Virus record (IMG/VR): IMGVR_UViG_3300036826_000347
Location: 1 to 46,394 of that record
DNA: 46,394 nt
From: a virus
Strand: one strand, 5' to 3'
Below, one piece after another: positions 2,636-7,610 of this stretch (the first letter of the stretch is position 1; each line of letters begins with the position of its first letter). A program made the translations under genes and the position numbers. Below the pieces are notes generated by a model, which saw only the letters and a program-made list of their open reading frames with translations, did not search any database and was not told the origin of the DNA.

Positions 2636-3082
2636 GTGCCTAATTTCGAACACAAGCTGACTTTCGACAATCCGTTCGGAGGTCTAAAAACGCATATCAA
2701 ACGGTATAAGATGGTATATTCAATTGGGACAACCGCGGTTATCGCAGGAATTACTGGTCTTATAATAGGAGGGCGATGTGCCGGGATTCTTGGAGTGCCG
2801 GATAGAACGGTGACGACCGTGTTTGCACGCCCTCTTTTTCTATTTTCCAATCACAACAAAATGTACAACGTAGTTGCGGTAATTACGAAAGAAGGGCGCG
2901 GTCATCCCGGATTTCCAATTTTGTGCAAAGAGACCGGAGATGTCTTCTTGTCGCAAAATGGCGCAGCGTCATGGCTCGGTGTTTCTCCGGGTATTCTTTC
3001 TTCACATCTAAAAGGATATCGTCCTAACATTGACGGTTTCACGTTCGAACGTCTGTCAGCAATTCCTGCAATTCCAGCCTAA
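2636..3082 (+). CDS. Membrane-anchored protein with small DNA-binding-like C-terminal domain
   Basis: I place the start at GTG 2636 behind AGGAAGG, giving 148 residues; an upstream GTG at 2555 would lie within the S1 leader. Around residues 23-48 is a membrane helix (YSIGTTAVIAGITGLIIGG). The C-terminal half reads ILCKETGDVFLSQNGAASWLGVSPGILSSHLKG..PNIDGFTFERL. That pattern resembles the NUMOD1/HTH-like modules that follow a sequence-recognition theme in phage proteins. I recall similar short proteins in actinobacteriophages with a membrane segment and this ending. The gene contains an embedded promoter-like element and a putative small RNA (2742-2845). Confidence 0.7.
   Translation: MPNFEHKLTFDNPFGGLKTHIKRYKMVYSIGTTAVIAGITGLIIGGRCAGILGVPDRTVTTVFARPLFLFSNHNKMYNVVAVITKEGRGHPGFPILCKETGDVFLSQNGAASWLGVSPGILSSHLKGYRPNIDGFTFERLSAIPAIPA
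2742..2766 (+). promoter_or_regulatory. Phage promoter P7, inside a coding region
   Basis: TCGCAG at 2742-2747 and TATAAT at 2761-2766 with exactly 13 bases between, inside the gene at 2636-3082. Both boxes match the consensus perfectly, although the spacer is less A-rich (GAATTACTGGTCT). The chance of both hexamers at this exact spacing is small, but the region also encodes a membrane helix, so this copy needs testing. Confidence 0.5.
2767..2845 (+). ncRNA. Putative small RNA S2, embedded in a gene
   Basis: Immediately after the P7 -10 box, AGGAGGGCG (2767-2775) pairs with CGCCCTCTT (2828-2836), 9 bp with one wobble, followed by a T-rich stretch. Inside are CCGG...CCGG and ACGGT-GACG-ACCGT hairpins and a GTGC/GCAC extension of the closing stem. 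The TTGGAG...ACGG..ACG..CGTG order is shared with S3. The sequence is also codons of the gene at 2636-3082, so the RNA is a nested gene or a coincidence. Confidence 0.4.
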
Positions 3083-3093
3083 CCATATATCGG

Positions 3094-3260
3094 TTAGGTT
3101 ACTCAGACACAGGCCCAAATCCTAGACGCAGCGCGGAAGAGTACTGACCTGCTCTTTGGCGGCGACAATAAGACTCGATAACCCTTTGGTTATCCCTTAG
3201 CTAGGTGCTGTCAAAAGGTAGGTCAGTGCGATAGCACAAGCCTGTGTCTCAGTAACCTAA
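3094..3260 (+). ncRNA. Structured RNA candidate A
   Basis: A 21-base arm at 3094-3114 pairs with 3240-3260 with a single mismatch. Inside, ACTGACCT (3143-3150) pairs with AGGTCAGT (3220-3227), GATAACC-CTTT-GGTTATC forms a 7-bp hairpin at 3177-3194, and GTGC-GATA-GCAC forms another at 3226-3237. The total is 167 nt. The left arm can alternatively pair with CCTAACC (3078-3084), which overlaps the stop codon of the upstream gene, so a switch between two folds is possible. It is not a tRNA (no acceptor or T-arm pattern), and I recognise no known class. Confidence 0.65.
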
Positions 3261-3267
3261 TCGGAGC

Positions 3268-3292
3268 TCGCGAGAAAAACTTACACTATAAT
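3268..3292 (+). promoter_or_regulatory. Phage promoter P5 (TCGCG-13-TATAAT)
   Basis: TCGCGA at 3268-3273 and TATAAT at 3287-3292 with 13 bases between. The spacer GAAAAACTTACAC resembles that of P6 (GAAAAACTGGGCA). It starts 8 bases after RNA candidate A and directly precedes small RNA S3. Confidence 0.75.
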
Positions 3293-3360
3293 AGAAGGGG
3301 GAGAGCTTCGCATTGGAGCCAGACACGGCTACGGTCGTGAACCCCTTCTATTTTTTCTTT
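3293..3360 (+). ncRNA. Putative small RNA S3
   Basis: AGAAGGGG (3293-3300), which begins right after the -10 box, pairs perfectly with CCCCTTCT (3342-3349), followed by ATTTTTTCTTT. Between the arms lie short stems (AGCC/GGCT and CACG/CGTG). No coding frame is convincing in these 68 bases. The perfect terminal stem starting at the likely transcription start and ending in a T run makes this the clearest of the three putative small RNAs. Its target is unknown. Confidence 0.6.
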
Positions 3361-3371
3361 GAGGAGGTGAT

Positions 3372-3470
3372 ATGTACGACGTTGCGTTTTGGATCGTGTA
3401 CAAGATCGGTGTTCTAACTAGGAGACTCAATGTTCGTAATCGTCGAGAAGAAGAACTACGGTTTTTTTAG
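3372..3470 (+). CDS. Very small hypothetical protein
   Basis: This 32-residue reading frame begins at an ATG placed ideally behind GAGGAGGTGAT. The product (MYDVAFWIVYKIGVL then basic and acidic residues) has a short hydrophobic start and no recognisable family. It overlaps the better supported 46-residue gene at 3430-3570 by 41 bases in another frame. It may mainly serve as a leader that couples translation of that gene. Confidence 0.45.
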   Translation: MYDVAFWIVYKIGVLTRRLNVRNRREEELRFF

Positions 3471-3570
3471 TTTTGTAGGCGACTGCATCATGGTCATCCT
3501 TACGTGCGGATTCTGGTTGATCTGGATTTTCGTACGTGAGATGCGAAGACGTTCCCGCTATACCGTCTAG
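3430..3570 (+). CDS. Tiny membrane protein, paralogue of 2038-2154
   Basis: This 46-residue protein starts at the ATG after AGGAGACTCA. It shares DCIM..LT.G.WLIW.F.REMR with the 38-residue protein at 2038-2154 and has one transmembrane helix (CIMVILTCGFWLIWIFV). Two copies within 1.4 kb suggest a duplicated small membrane effector. The role is unknown. It is followed six bases later by the DUF6353-like gene. Confidence 0.75.
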   Translation: MFVIVEKKNYGFFSFVGDCIMVILTCGFWLIWIFVREMRRRSRYTV

Positions 3571-3576
3571 AAAGGT

Positions 3577-4392
3577 ATGCATATGTTGAGTGCACTGATT
3601 CGCCATGGCGATAAGGTGAAGTTCTTGTTGAAGGATCATGCGCCGACGATTCTGACGGGCGTGGGTGTTACGGGCACGATTGCGACGGCATATTTGACCG
3701 GACGCGCCTCGTTCAAAGCGGCCGAGCTGATCGAGAAGGATCCGGGTGTCGAAAGCATGTATGTCGACGGCGATGGCGGCATGGCTCGGATGCATCGACC
3801 GTTGACCAACTTCGAAAAGAGCAAACTGGTCTGGAAGCTGTATATTCCACCGCTTGGTGCAGGCGTACTGACCGTCGGCTGCATCATCACCGCAAATCGA
3901 ATCTCGGCAGCTCGGATTGCAGCCTTGGGAGTTGCGGCCGGTATTTCTGAACGGGCACTGCAGGAATACAAGGATAAGGTGCTCGAGCGATTGGGTGAGA
4001 AGCAGAGCGAAAAGATTCGTGACGAGATTGCGCAGGATCGCGTCAATGACAGCGCCGAGAAGGCGAGCAATGTTGTTGTCATGGGCTCAGGCGACGTGCT
4101 CTGTTATGACGGACTGACTGGTCGTTATTTCACCAGTTCAGTTGAGAAGATCAAGCAGGCCGAGAACCATCTCAATTTCGAGGTGTTGCGGCATATGTAC
4201 GCCAGTTTGAGCGAGTTCTACGAACAGATCGGCTTGCCTCCGACTACCTACAGCGATAGTGTCGGCTGGCACAGCGAGACCGGAGAGATCAATGTAATGC
4301 TTTCGACGACGATGACTCCAGACAATCGTCCGTGCATCTCGATCGACTTCGAGAAGATGCCGCAGACCGAGTATTACAAGCTGCACGAGTGA
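3577..4392 (+). CDS. DUF6353-like membrane protein, copy 1
   Basis: This 271-residue protein shows the pattern I recall for DUF6353 phage proteins. An N-terminal segment reads FLLKDHAPTILTGVGVTGTIATAYLTGRASFKA; then comes a hydrophobic pair (YIPPLGAGVLTVGCIITANRISAARIAALG, about residues 90-125), a basic coiled segment, and a C-terminal SEFYEQIGLPP..DSVGWHSETGEINVMLSTTMTPDN. The function of the family is unknown. A second, divergent copy lies at 6690-7610. The ATG at 3577 follows AAAGGT; an alternative ATG lies two codons downstream. Confidence 0.75.
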   Translation: MHMLSALIRHGDKVKFLLKDHAPTILTGVGVTGTIATAYLTGRASFKAAELIEKDPGVESMYVDGDGGMARMHRPLTNFEKSKLVWKLYIPPLGAGVLTVGCIITANRISAARIAALGVAAGISERALQEYKDKVLERLGEKQSEKIRDEIAQDRVNDSAEKASNVVVMGSGDVLCYDGLTGRYFTSSVEKIKQAENHLNFEVLRHMYASLSEFYEQIGLPPTTYSDSVGWHSETGEINVMLSTTMTPDNRPCISIDFEKMPQTEYYKLHE

Positions 4393-4467
4393 AGGAAACG
4401 CATGGCGCGTTGCAGTGCCATGATCGACGAACTCCTCGACGAACCGTGAGCGTTGGAAAGGAAGACT

Positions 4468-4575
4468 ATGAACGCAAGCAAAGCGGCAGCGATTATTCGT
4501 ATTCTCAGCACGCCTCGTAATCGCGACCCGCGTTTTCTCCACTATGTCGTCGACAAGATCGTCCGTGGATGGTGA
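4468..4575 (+). CDS. Very small basic protein
   Basis: This 35-residue protein starts at the ATG behind AAAGGAAGACT. It is rich in Arg and Ala (NASKAAAIIRILSTPRNRDPRF) and is not recognised. It is located between the DUF6353-like gene and the chaperone-like gene, three bases before the latter. The good ribosome binding site and tight spacing are the only support. Confidence 0.55.
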   Translation: MNASKAAAIIRILSTPRNRDPRFLHYVVDKIVRGW

Positions 4576-4578
4576 CAG

Positions 4579-5118
4579 ATGCTCAAGAAGACGATTACGT
4601 ACGAGGATTTCAACGGCGAGACAGTTGTCGAGGATCATTTCTTCCATCTCTCGAAAGCGGAGCTAGTCGAGCTCGAACTGAGCCATCAGGGCGGTTTGGC
4701 GGCCTCGTTGCAAAAGATCATCAGCTCCGAAGATGGCAAGGCAATCATCGCGGAATTCAAGAATATCATCCTGACCTCCTACGGCAAGCGTTCGGACGAT
4801 GGACGACGTTTCATCAAGAACCAGGAATTTCGTGAAGAATTCGAATCGACCGAGGCATATTCGGCGTTGTTCATGGAATTGGTTACGGATACAGACGCCG
4901 CGGTCGAATTTGTCAACGGCATCATTCCGGCAGGTATGAGCGAGGAAGCTGCTAAATTGGCAGGAATCGACCCCAAGACCACACCGTTGATCGTGGTAGA
5001 GAACGAATCGCCGGGAAGACTCGTAACGAGGAAAGAATTCGTGGAGATGTCTCAGGATGAGCTTCGCGAGTTGGGACCGAAATTGGCCTCGGGTGAGGTG
5101 AAGCTCGAGCAGGAATGA
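4579..5118 (+). CDS. Tail assembly chaperone-like protein
   Basis: The N-terminus (MLKKTITYEDFNGETVVEDHFFHLSKAEL) and the central block (FKNIILTSYGKRSDDGRRFIKN, ESTEAYSALFMELVTD, FVNGIIP) match a conserved phage family. I recall it beside tail genes, annotated as a tail assembly chaperone or hypothetical protein, in Gram-positive phages. The family is usually near the tape measure gene; here it sits among early small genes, far from the second chaperone-like gene at 39461. Its stop codon is part of the first arm of RNA candidate 1. Confidence 0.65.
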   Translation: MLKKTITYEDFNGETVVEDHFFHLSKAELVELELSHQGGLAASLQKIISSEDGKAIIAEFKNIILTSYGKRSDDGRRFIKNQEFREEFESTEAYSALFMELVTDTDAAVEFVNGIIPAGMSEEAAKLAGIDPKTTPLIVVENESPGRLVTRKEFVEMSQDELRELGPKLASGEVKLEQE

Positions 5119-5228
5119 GGATAGCGAAATTAATGAGACGACAAAAAGATGGCCTCGTGGAAGCGCCATTAACAAAGCGTCAGCCCTGTCCACGCGGGGA
5201 AGGCGGTTAAAGCCGCTCGCTATCCTCA
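5116..5228 (+). ncRNA. Structured RNA candidate 1
   Basis: TGAGGATAGCG (5116-5126) pairs perfectly with CGCTATCCTCA (5218-5228), closing 113 nt. Inside are GACG (5137-5140) with CGTC (5178-5181), a hairpin ATGGC/GCCAT (5149-5169), a GCGG/CCGC hairpin near 5203-5216, and a loop contact CGTGG (5156-5160) with CCACG (5190-5194) that would form a pseudoknot. The first arm includes the stop codon of the chaperone-like gene. It shares CGACAA.AAGA with candidates A and 2. I see no coding frame and no tRNA features. Confidence 0.65.
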
Positions 5229-5232
5229 GAAG

Positions 5233-5417
5233 TTCCCAGGCTTAGTTAGATCACCGTCTTGTAGGAGAGGTCTCCCTATGTGGAGGCCCTTCACGAGATT
5301 TAAGGGGCGACAAAGACCTAGACTTCTGCAAGAGTTCGGGAACAAATCGTCCGGTGTTGCAGCGCAAAGCGGGTTAACTCGTACCGCGCGAGACGGCGGT
5401 CTAACTAAGCCTGGGAA
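5233..5417 (+). ncRNA. Structured RNA candidate 2
   Basis: A 27-base arm (5233-5259, starting TTCCCAGGCTTAG) pairs with 5391-5417 (ending CTAAGCCTGGGAA) with one wobble and one mismatch. This is the longest stem in the window. Inside, CTGCAA pairs with TTGCAG, AGGTCT with AGACCT, and a GCCCTT/AAGGGGC stem and a TAGG..CCTA hairpin are visible. Total length is 185 nt. Its last base lies one base before promoter P6, just as candidate A ends right before P5. The class is not recognised. Confidence 0.7.
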
Positions 5418-5418
5418 T

Positions 5419-5443
5419 TCGCATGAAAAACTGGGCATATAAT
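5419..5443 (+). promoter_or_regulatory. Phage promoter P6 (TCGCA-13-TATAAT)
   Basis: TCGCAT at 5419-5424 and TATAAT at 5438-5443 with 13 bases between. The leader AGAACCTACTAAGGAG is nearly that of P1 (AGAACTACTAAAGGAG). It drives the single gene at 5465-5704, which ends in terminator T4. Confidence 0.8.
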
Positions 5444-5464
5444 AGAACCTACTAAGGAGATGTT

Positions 5465-5704
5465 ATGTCTTTGCCTATGGCCAGGCTTGCTGTACATGCT
5501 GTTGCGAGCCTTGGTGTTACGAAGGTCATTCACGATATCATTCGAGTCAATACCGTCGTTACCAGCACTTTTGACGCTGTCAGAGTTGCCACGGGAACAC
5601 TGGTAATCGGCTCTTTGATTTCGGAGGTCGCTTCGAAGCACGTTAACGATCGTATCAATGATGTCGTCGCCTGGAACAATCAGCGAAAGGCTGACAACAA
5701 TTAG
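5465..5704 (+). CDS. Small conserved phage protein
   Basis: This 79-residue protein has two hydrophobic stretches (ARLAVHAVASLGVTKVIHDII and ATGTLVIGSLISEVA) and a C-terminal helix ending in VNDRINDVVAWNNQRKADNN. I recall actinobacteriophage proteins with the same order VxKVxxDII-N-V-T...D..KV..G...LG.M...H...KI..VV.W. It is probably membrane-associated; the function is unknown. It has a strong ribosome binding site (AAGGAG) and a dedicated promoter and terminator. Confidence 0.75.
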   Translation: MSLPMARLAVHAVASLGVTKVIHDIIRVNTVVTSTFDAVRVATGTLVIGSLISEVASKHVNDRINDVVAWNNQRKADNN

Positions 5705-6447: not shown

Positions 6448-6690
6448 ATGACAAGAGCAGTTGAGATTCGAGAATTCGCTCAACGAGTTGAGCGTGTGTG
6501 TGATTTTCTGCTTGATCTTTTGAGCGCCGAAGGAATGAAAAACAAATCGACCGATGCTCGGGTAATTGAAGATCTGAGAGACGATGCCGTGAGTATCCAA
6601 TTCAATCGAATAGATTATCCTCATCTCTTCGAGGGTCTCGACACGTATATACGCGGCATTCCGATAAATAAAGCAGAAACCAAGGAGTAA
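6448..6690 (+). CDS. Small hypothetical protein
   Basis: This 80-residue, mostly helical, charged protein (TRAVEIREFAQRVERVCDFLLDLL...VIEDLRDDAVSIQFNR) is not recognised. No clear ribosome binding site precedes the ATG. The stop overlaps the start of the next gene (TAATG), so it probably belongs to the same transcript as the DUF6353-like gene. The pairing with a membrane-protein operon is the only hint about its role. Confidence 0.65.
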   Translation: MTRAVEIREFAQRVERVCDFLLDLLSAEGMKNKSTDARVIEDLRDDAVSIQFNRIDYPHLFEGLDTYIRGIPINKAETKE

Positions 6691-7610
6691 TGATGAAGTT
6701 CGTCCCCGAGGCGATCACAAAGACGATTGCCCATAATTCTTTGTTACTGCAGAAGAGCTCTCCAAAGCTTCTTTTTGGAGTCGGTATGGTTGGTATGGTC
6801 GGAAGTACAGTTCTTGCTTGTCGCGCTACGTTGAAAATGGATGAAATCGTCGACGAGGCGAAGAGTAAGCTCGATCTGGCCAAGACACTCGAGCACGAAG
6901 ATTACGGCGAAAAAGATCGCCAACGGGATATTTCGCTCATCTACTTCCAGACCAGCGTCAAAGTGGTACGAACATATCTACCGGCAATTATCGTCGGTAG
7001 CGCATCGATTGCTGCTCTGACCTATTCGCACAATATCCTAACCCGGCGTAATATCGCTTTGACCGCTGCATATTCCGCCTTGGACAAGGGATTTCGCGAA
7101 TACCGAGCGCGAGTAATCGATAAGTATGGTGAAGACGAAGATCGAAATCTCAGATACGGCAGTCAAGAAGTAGAAGTTATCGACGAAAAAGGTAAAAGTA
7201 AGAAGGTGATCCGGGCAGCTCCGGGTACGCCATCGATCTATGCGCGCTTCTTCGATTCATATTCGGCCAACTGGGGCAAAGATCACGATTACAATATGTA
7301 TTTTCTGCTTTGTCAGCAAAATTGGGCCAACGATTGCCTGAAAGCTCGCGGTCATGTGTTCTTGAACGAGGTCTACGACTTGCTCGGACTCGATCGTTCG
7401 AAAGCGGGAGCAGTGGTCGGTTGGATTCAATCTAAAAATGGCGAGACCGACAATCATATCAGTTTCGGTGTTTTCGACGGCAAAACGCAGGTCGCACGCG
7501 ATTTTGTCAATGGTTACGAAGGTGCGATCTTGCTCGATTTCAATGTCGACGGTGTAATTTACGATCAAATTGAAGGCTCATCGGAGGATCCAAAATGGCA
7601 GCGGTATTGA
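6690..7610 (+). CDS. DUF6353-like membrane protein, copy 2
   Basis: This 306-residue protein has the same plan as copy 1 at 3577. It has SSPKLLFGVGMVGMVGSTVLACRATLKMDEI near the start, a central hydrophobic region (YLPAIIVGSASIAALTYSHNILTRRNIALTAAYSAL), a basic coiled stretch and a C-terminal domain (LNEVYDLLGLDRSKAGAVVGWI....ISFGVFDGKT). The function of the family is unknown. It overlaps the next gene by 16 bases, suggesting coupled expression of two membrane proteins. Confidence 0.75.
   Translation: MMKFVPEAITKTIAHNSLLLQKSSPKLLFGVGMVGMVGSTVLACRATLKMDEIVDEAKSKLDLAKTLEHEDYGEKDRQRDISLIYFQTSVKVVRTYLPAIIVGSASIAALTYSHNILTRRNIALTAAYSALDKGFREYRARVIDKYGEDEDRNLRYGSQEVEVIDEKGKSKKVIRAAPGTPSIYARFFDSYSANWGKDHDYNMYFLLCQQNWANDCLKARGHVFLNEVYDLLGLDRSKAGAVVGWIQSKNGETDNHISFGVFDGKTQVARDFVNGYEGAILLDFNVDGVIYDQIEGSSEDPKWQRY

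What the first reader, a model, noticed from the sequence alone, without database searches (positions are those of the whole stretch)
5233..5417. Structured RNA with 27-base near-perfect arms abutting promoter P6
This is the longest inverted repeat of the window and encloses several further stems. It ends one base before P6, just as RNA A ends 8 bases before P5. The repeated order large RNA-then-TCGCA promoter hints that the RNA ends transcription or shields the downstream unit.
Basis: partly seen in the sequence, partly recalled or inferred. Interest (0 to 1): 0.7.

Follow-up and report, generated by a model that had tools for sequence, protein, structure and literature searches.

The report
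New structured RNA family of phages
The long hairpin next to the promoter is one of two copies in this virus of a previously undescribed, intricately folded RNA that many unrelated bacterial viruses carry, often among their tRNA genes, so it is probably a stable working RNA rather than a simple stop signal.

Summary
The inverted repeat at 5233-5417 is real, the longest in the window, and far beyond chance. It is the closing helix (P1) of a multi-branched RNA (B2). Both belong to an RNA family with no Rfam match: an NNNCGACAA/ACAAAUCGNNN stem (P2) with a hairpin (P2a), a short hairpin (P3) one nucleotide later, and usually AAASCGG. The P3 loop is complementary to the P2a loop. Loop sequences differ but complementarity persists: 52 of 68 non-redundant members pair the whole loop, with 31 different loops. 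In the first 51, 41 pair it (swap control mean 4.7, maximum 12); in a later set, 11 of 17 (mean 1.4, maximum 5). Members occur in actinobacteriophages, Pelagibacter-phage-like myoviruses and several large phages, often beside tRNA or tmRNA genes. Relatives lacking B1 and B2 join the upstream stop codon directly to the promoter, so the RNAs are optional cassettes. There is no U-tract, and in relatives a gene's Shine-Dalgarno follows the RNA immediately, so a terminator role is unlikely. Most likely: a stable, trans-acting phage RNA freed from longer transcripts. Its target is unknown. RNA A (3090-3264) is a different RNA.

The parts
5116..5228 (+). RNA B1: closing helix P1 5116-5127/5217-5228 (12 bp, its 5' strand overlaps the stop codon of the tail-assembly-chaperone-like gene)
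   Evidence: fold; CM hit 58.7 bits; homologue in L044 with compensatory changes in P1, P2 and P3
5137..5181 (+). B1 P2: G5137-G5140 with C5178-C5181, conserved CAA (5142-5144) and ACAAA (5172-5176) between P2 and P2a
5156..5161 (+). B1 P2a loop segment CGUGGA, partner of the P3 loop
5184..5199 (+). B1 P3 hairpin CCCUG-UCCACG-CGGGG; loop 5189-5194 complementary to 5156-5161
5231..5419 (+). RNA B2 (the finding), 189 nt
   Evidence: CM hit 65.4 bits
5233..5259 (+). B2 P1, 5' arm
5391..5417 (+). B2 P1, 3' arm
5264..5293 (+). B2-specific extra hairpin between P1 and P2
   Evidence: MFE fold
5305..5352 (+). B2 P2: GGGCGA 5305-5310 with UCGUCC 5347-5352; CAA 5311-5313 and ACAAA 5342-5346
5326..5331 (+). 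B2 P2a loop segment CUGCAA, partner of the P3 loop
5354..5365 (+). B2 P3 hairpin GUG-UUGCAG-CGC; loop 5357-5362 complementary to 5326-5331
5366..5390 (+). B2 AAAGCGG motif and P4 hairpin region
5418..5443 (+). promoter P6 (TTCGCA...TATAAT), shared by relatives that lack the RNA; not part of the RNA
3090..3264 (+). RNA A: a different structured RNA with 24-bp arms; one relative found (L012 2725-2877)
   Evidence: no CM hit even with filters off

Best explanation
B1 and B2 are two copies of an undescribed family of phage structured RNAs. SHOWN by comparative sequence: a helix P2 with conserved CAA/ACAAA internal-loop strands and a hairpin P2a; one nucleotide after P2 a short hairpin P3, usually with a 6-nt loop; and a loop-loop (kissing) helix of about 6 bp between P2a and P3. 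In many members the whole is closed by P1 (10-32 bp). INFERRED: the RNA is transcribed as part of longer transcripts (3' of a gene, or within tRNA/tmRNA arrays), is cut free at or near P1 (for long P1 helices such as B2's, RNase III is the obvious candidate), and persists as a stable RNA that acts in trans, most likely on the translation or RNA-decay machinery or as an assembling RNA. My confidence is about 0.95 that this is a real RNA family with the kissing helix, and about 0.55-0.6 that it acts in trans as a stable RNA. The molecular target is not known.
For: Fold z -7.7. Covariance model R1 finds 22 copies in the relatives' loci, both window copies included. Two pattern-plus-model rounds found further members in unrelated phages. 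The kissing pairing was in neither the model nor the patterns: 41 of 51 members pair the whole P3 loop (1000 swaps: mean 4.7, max 12) and 11 of 17 later members do (2000 swaps: mean 1.4, max 5). Base-pair counts on a trimmed alignment give 97.7% paired against 64.5% in shuffles and at most 47% when slid; all 6 kissing pairs have double changes (the kissing register was chosen by complementarity, so the swap controls are the fair test). B1 in the window and in L044 differ by compensatory double changes in P1 (3 of 12 bp), P2 and P3. Trans action: neighbouring genes are not conserved (tail-chaperone/small ORFs, neck gene, tRNA, tmRNA). In 11 records that hold tRNA or tmRNA genes the RNA lies closer to them than chance (Fisher p about 1e-6; distances of 28-176 nt in four), on the same strand in those examined. 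Four later members also abut tRNA genes (L384, L391, L392, L407). The cassette is optional in close relatives.
Against: No transcript, processing site or partner has been observed. In the window's own group the RNA is not beside tRNAs (except, at 1.2 kb, in L028), so position there would also fit a cis role. P1 exceeds 95% of swapped controls in only 21 of 51 members, and the Pelagibacter-phage-like members show no clear P1, so P1 processing cannot be general. The tRNA test rests on 11 records, three with p > 0.15.
Confidence: 0.6

Rival explanations
1. A cis-acting intercistronic element: a folded barrier that stabilises, insulates or sets processing ends of polycistronic phage mRNAs (for example blocking exoribonucleases, as viral exonuclease-resistant RNAs do), without a separate life in trans.
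For: Intergenic and, where orientation could be judged, on the strand of its neighbours. In the actinophages it begins directly after a stop codon or T-run and ends just before a promoter or Shine-Dalgarno, and P1 reaches 24-32 bp.
Against: Neighbouring genes share no common feature. The RNA is often between tRNA genes that need no such element. It is optional in close relatives. Barriers do not need a conserved core with a loop-loop helix in phages of unrelated groups.
Confidence: 0.22
2. A processive antitermination RNA acting on RNA polymerase, comparable to HK022 put RNA or EAR.
For: Phage early-type region with many small units. Two hairpins separated by one nucleotide (P3 starts 7 nt after the start of the P2 3' strand in 49 of 51) recall put RNA's two stem-loops (PMC9378689).
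Against: In several actinophages it lies downstream of the nearest terminator rather than before it. It sits in tRNA/tmRNA arrays and beside a structural (neck) gene. It has a different closing helix and loop-loop pairing.
Confidence: 0.08
3. One reading: a transcription terminator or shield for the downstream unit.
For: Very stable hairpin directly before a promoter.
Against: No U-tract and no terminator call. Downstream genes without a visible promoter follow the RNA in L005, L006, L012 and L015. The same promoter exists without it.
Confidence: 0.06
4. A DNA-level or mobile element (inverted repeat, cruciform, insertion remnant) rather than an RNA.
For: Its presence and position vary between close relatives.
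Against: The + strand folds better than the - strand, and single-stranded loop-loop pairing with a fixed strand relative to the genes fits RNA. No flanking repeats or transposase were seen.
Confidence: 0.04

Closest known systems
GOLLD and ROOL RNAs (PMC12286853)
   Same: Structured phage/prophage RNAs without assigned function, often near tRNA islands; kissing loops are part of their architecture.
   Different: They are 600-900 nt and have Rfam models; this RNA is about 110-240 nt, matches no Rfam family, and has its own core motif.
phi29 prohead RNA (pRNA)
   Same: Closing helix, then a long hairpin, then a short hairpin, whose loops are complementary to each other while loop sequences vary (general knowledge of pRNA).
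   Different: No Rfam hit. Here there are 1-2 copies per genome with different loop pairs, optional in close relatives, and not tied to a packaging gene. Whether the pairing is within or between molecules is unknown.
HK022 put RNA and EAR antitermination RNAs (PMC9378689 for put)
   Same: Phage RNA with two adjacent hairpins one nucleotide apart.
   Different: put is about 70 nt and lies downstream of the early promoters, before the terminators it suppresses; no loop-loop helix was reported in the passages read.
Viral exonuclease-resistant RNAs
   Same: Compact pseudoknot-like fold in untranslated regions (general knowledge).
   Different: Different topology; no Rfam match; activity untested.

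Membership tests
Any Rfam 15 family (including GOLLD, ROOL, pRNA, tmRNA, group I introns) | Covariance-model match | tested here: not met
   Nothing in the window at gathering score; nothing up to E 5 at 4900-5700; 20 related loci gave only tRNA, tmRNA and one intron elsewhere
Intrinsic terminator | GC-rich hairpin followed at once by a T-run | tested here: not met
   No T-run after 5417 and no call there (sequence)
New family defined here | P2 with NNNCGA-CAA / ACAAA-UCGNNN | tested here: met
   B1 58.7 bits, B2 65.4 bits; the model was built with both, but 5 members outside it were found at once. B1 has CAAAGCGUC in place of CAAAUCGUC
New family defined here | P3 loop complementary to P2a loop | tested here: met
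   B1 CGUGGA/UCCACG, B2 CUGCAA/UUGCAG
New family defined here | RNA A belongs to it | tested here: not met
   No convincing hit with filters off at 2900-5700 beyond B1 and B2
GOLLD/ROOL-like tRNA-array RNA (as a kind) | Encoded near tRNA or tmRNA genes | tested here: met
   Family-wide, p about 1e-6 over 11 records; not so in the window itself, which has no tRNA
pRNA-like oligomer | Loop-loop pairing between molecules | not testable with these tools
   Sequence complementarity cannot separate pairing within from pairing between molecules
Processive antitermination RNA | Suppresses downstream terminators | not testable with these tools
   Needs transcription assays

The most novel reading that the evidence does not exclude
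The loop-loop helix forms between molecules, so that this small phage RNA assembles into rings or chains: a minimal self-assembling RNA particle, made beside phage tRNA and tmRNA genes by phages of very different groups. P2 and P3 are separated by one nucleotide in nearly all members; if they stack end to end, the two complementary loops would point away from each other.
Probability: 0.2. Interest if true: 0.88.

Novelty: new variant of a known kind. Interest (0 to 1): 0.72.

Why it matters
It adds a compact RNA with a clear covariation signature to the small set of complex phage RNAs of unknown function. At 110-190 nt it is far easier to make, mutate and solve than GOLLD or ROOL, and the kissing pairs give ready-made break-and-repair mutants. 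Its repeated placement beside tRNA and tmRNA genes in unrelated phages points to a role in how phages handle host translation or RNA decay, a question that could then be tested directly.

Tried and rejected
Rfam at gathering score and at E up to 5: nothing. blastn of several members against cultured phages: no significant homologue. Neighbourhoods of gp13 in Pelagibacter and cyanophage isolates: annotated genes leave no space for the RNA upstream of the neck gene. tRNA arrays of cultured DSS3_MAL1, RcXuper, Thermus phage TMA and Mycobacterium phage Snenia: no copy. About 670 cellular genomes (Actinomycetota phylum sample and one other class): two weak hits; L296 lacks the kissing loop, and no P2-like core was recovered in L297; both taken as chance. 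The scan of genome contigs gave three weak hits in the 80 loci kept, two inspected and rejected for lack of the kissing pairing. One viral scan had a wrongly set gap and was repeated. L094, L189, L201, L280 and L281 were excluded as chance pattern matches. RNA A tested as a member: rejected. Cis-regulation of one gene type: rejected, downstream genes differ. The terminator idea was rejected as above.

Full report
OBSERVATION. The 27-nt arms at 5233-5259 and 5391-5417 are the longest inverted repeat of the window. The + strand folds at -95.4 kcal/mol, z -7.7 against shuffles. The stretch is intergenic: the upstream gene (4579-5118, Pfam PF23803, annotated as a phage tail assembly chaperone family) ends at 5118 and the next (5465-5704) starts after promoter P6. 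A second closed RNA, B1 (5116-5228), sits between that stop codon and B2.

SETTING. The window is a virus record of 46,394 bases. Its DNA polymerase region resembles actinobacteriophages (Rhodococcus, Gordonia, Arthrobacter, Streptomyces phages). A scan with the polymerase brought 80 related loci, on which eleven neighbouring proteins were mapped.

A FAMILY. A search for long stems in the related loci found many RNAs of 150-240 nt with 24-32-bp arms of unrelated sequence. Reading them side by side showed one core: P2 with GRNCGACAA on the 5' side and ACAAAUCGNYC on the 3' side; a hairpin P2a inside; then, one nucleotide on, a short hairpin P3; then usually AAASCGG. A covariance model of 14 cores recovered 22 copies, 5 of them new, at E < 1e-5. 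Pattern scans of the viral collection followed by the model extended the family to unrelated phages. These include myovirus records with the RNA upstream of a neck protein (PHROG head-tail adaptor; similar neck genes in Pelagibacter phages and cyanophages) and records of 90-200 kb. Whole records hold one or two copies. None was found convincingly in about 670 cellular genomes, so the family looks phage-borne, within the limits of that sample.

THE LOOP-LOOP HELIX. The P3 loop is 6 nt in 48 of 51 members and is complementary to a segment of the P2a loop at nearly constant distance from P2. Own loops pair in full in 41 of 51; dealing the P3 loops out among members gives 4.7 on average and at most 12 in 1000 trials. 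Members found later behave the same (11 of 17; swapped mean 1.4, maximum 5 in 2000). Over all, 52 of 68 pair fully, with 31 different loop sequences. Neither the model nor the patterns contained this pairing, so it is an independent test. Pair counts are; there the kissing register was chosen by complementarity, so the swap controls are the fair statistic.

THE CLOSING HELIX. P1 exceeds 95% of swapped-arm controls in 21 of 51 members and all of 900 swaps in 10. It is long in the actinophages, shorter in several others, and not evident in the Pelagibacter-phage-like members. Between B1 of the window and B1 of its close relative L044, P1 shows three compensatory double changes in 12 bp, with further ones in P2 and P3.

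NATURAL DELETION. In L008, L010 and L013 the chaperone-like gene is followed at once by TCGCA...TATAAT (TTTAAT in L010). L044 has B1 but not B2. The window carries B1 and B2 inserted exactly at that junction. The promoter therefore does not depend on the RNAs, and most likely predates them. Other relatives carry the RNA elsewhere: upstream of the DUF6353 gene (L004-L007, L012, L015, L019, L025), or several kilobases downstream of the polymerase (L010, L028).

CONTEXT. In several actinophages the order is promoter, a leader of about 50-90 nt ending in a hairpin and T-run, the RNA, then a Shine-Dalgarno and start codon. A gene behind the RNA with no visible promoter of its own argues against termination by the RNA. 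In unrelated phages the RNA lies beside stable-RNA genes: between tRNA-Leu and tRNA-Arg in L098; 68 nt from a tRNA in L137; about 145 nt behind tmRNA in L105 and L108; before a permuted tmRNA in L131; within about 0.5 kb of tmRNA in L150. Four later members abut tRNAs (L384, L391, L392, L407). Over 11 records the closeness has a combined p of about 1e-6.

INTERPRETATION. The differing neighbours, the tRNA/tmRNA association, the optional cassette-like presence and the rigid core favour a stable RNA acting in trans over a signal acting on its neighbours. RNase III cutting in P1 is inferred from helix length only. Whether the loops pair within one molecule or between molecules is open; precedents exist for both (GOLLD/ROOL, PMC12286853; pRNA, general knowledge). 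I commit to the trans-acting stable RNA at about 0.6, with the family itself at about 0.95.

RNA A. The other long-arm RNA (3090-3264) is not a member. It has one close relative, in L012, where it lies directly before a B-type RNA. It is a second structured RNA with some covariation of its own.

LIMITS. Nearly all members come from uncultured virus records. The pattern scans need exact matches, so the family is certainly under-sampled and biased to CGACAA/CAAAUCG forms. E-values of the model are rough, and pattern-selected hits have inflated scores; that is why the loop-loop test is the main support. Literature was searched only in the open-access library, so a description in a subscription journal could have been missed.

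Noticed in passing
window 3090-3264; L012 2725-2877: RNA A, a different structured RNA with 24-bp arms. The two copies share long invariant blocks (ACACAGGCCCAAATCCTA, GGCGACAA, GCACAAGCCTGTGT) and show compensatory change in an inner helix (CUGACC/GGUCAG against CUAGCC/GGCUAG). In L012 it directly precedes a B-type RNA.
   Followed up: partly
window 3277-3355; L004, L012, L014, L015, L097, L125 upstream of the RNA: Promoter units in which the first transcribed bases (AGAAGG...) pair with a segment 50-90 nt on that is followed by a T-run: a terminator anchored at the transcript's 5' end, before any gene. It looks like an attenuator or a tiny sRNA gene.
   Followed up: partly
L047 4495-4666, L049 4486-4654, L052 5000-5194: Gordonia-type phages carry another long-arm RNA with a shared core (CUGGGAACUGGCGCGAAGAAUUGG in L049 and L052), not matched by the B-type model where tested (L047, L049).
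   Followed up: no
L013 4682-4850; L073 6270-6432: Further intergenic RNAs with long closing arms just before a promoter, unrelated in sequence to B-type.
   Followed up: no
L406 2981-3209; L111 1172 and 2497; L028 7372 and 7779; L389 4488 and 5366: Records with two B-type copies, in L406 in close tandem. The L389 5366 copy seems to lack the P2a stem but keeps the loop complementarity (UUGCAG/CUGCAA).
   Followed up: partly
L131 5000-5173: Group I intron (Rfam RF00028) in the same phage record as a B-type RNA and a permuted tmRNA.
   Followed up: no
window 3577-4392 and 6690-7610: Two paralogous DUF6353 genes (PF19880), about 25% identical to each other, kept in nearly all relatives.
   Followed up: no
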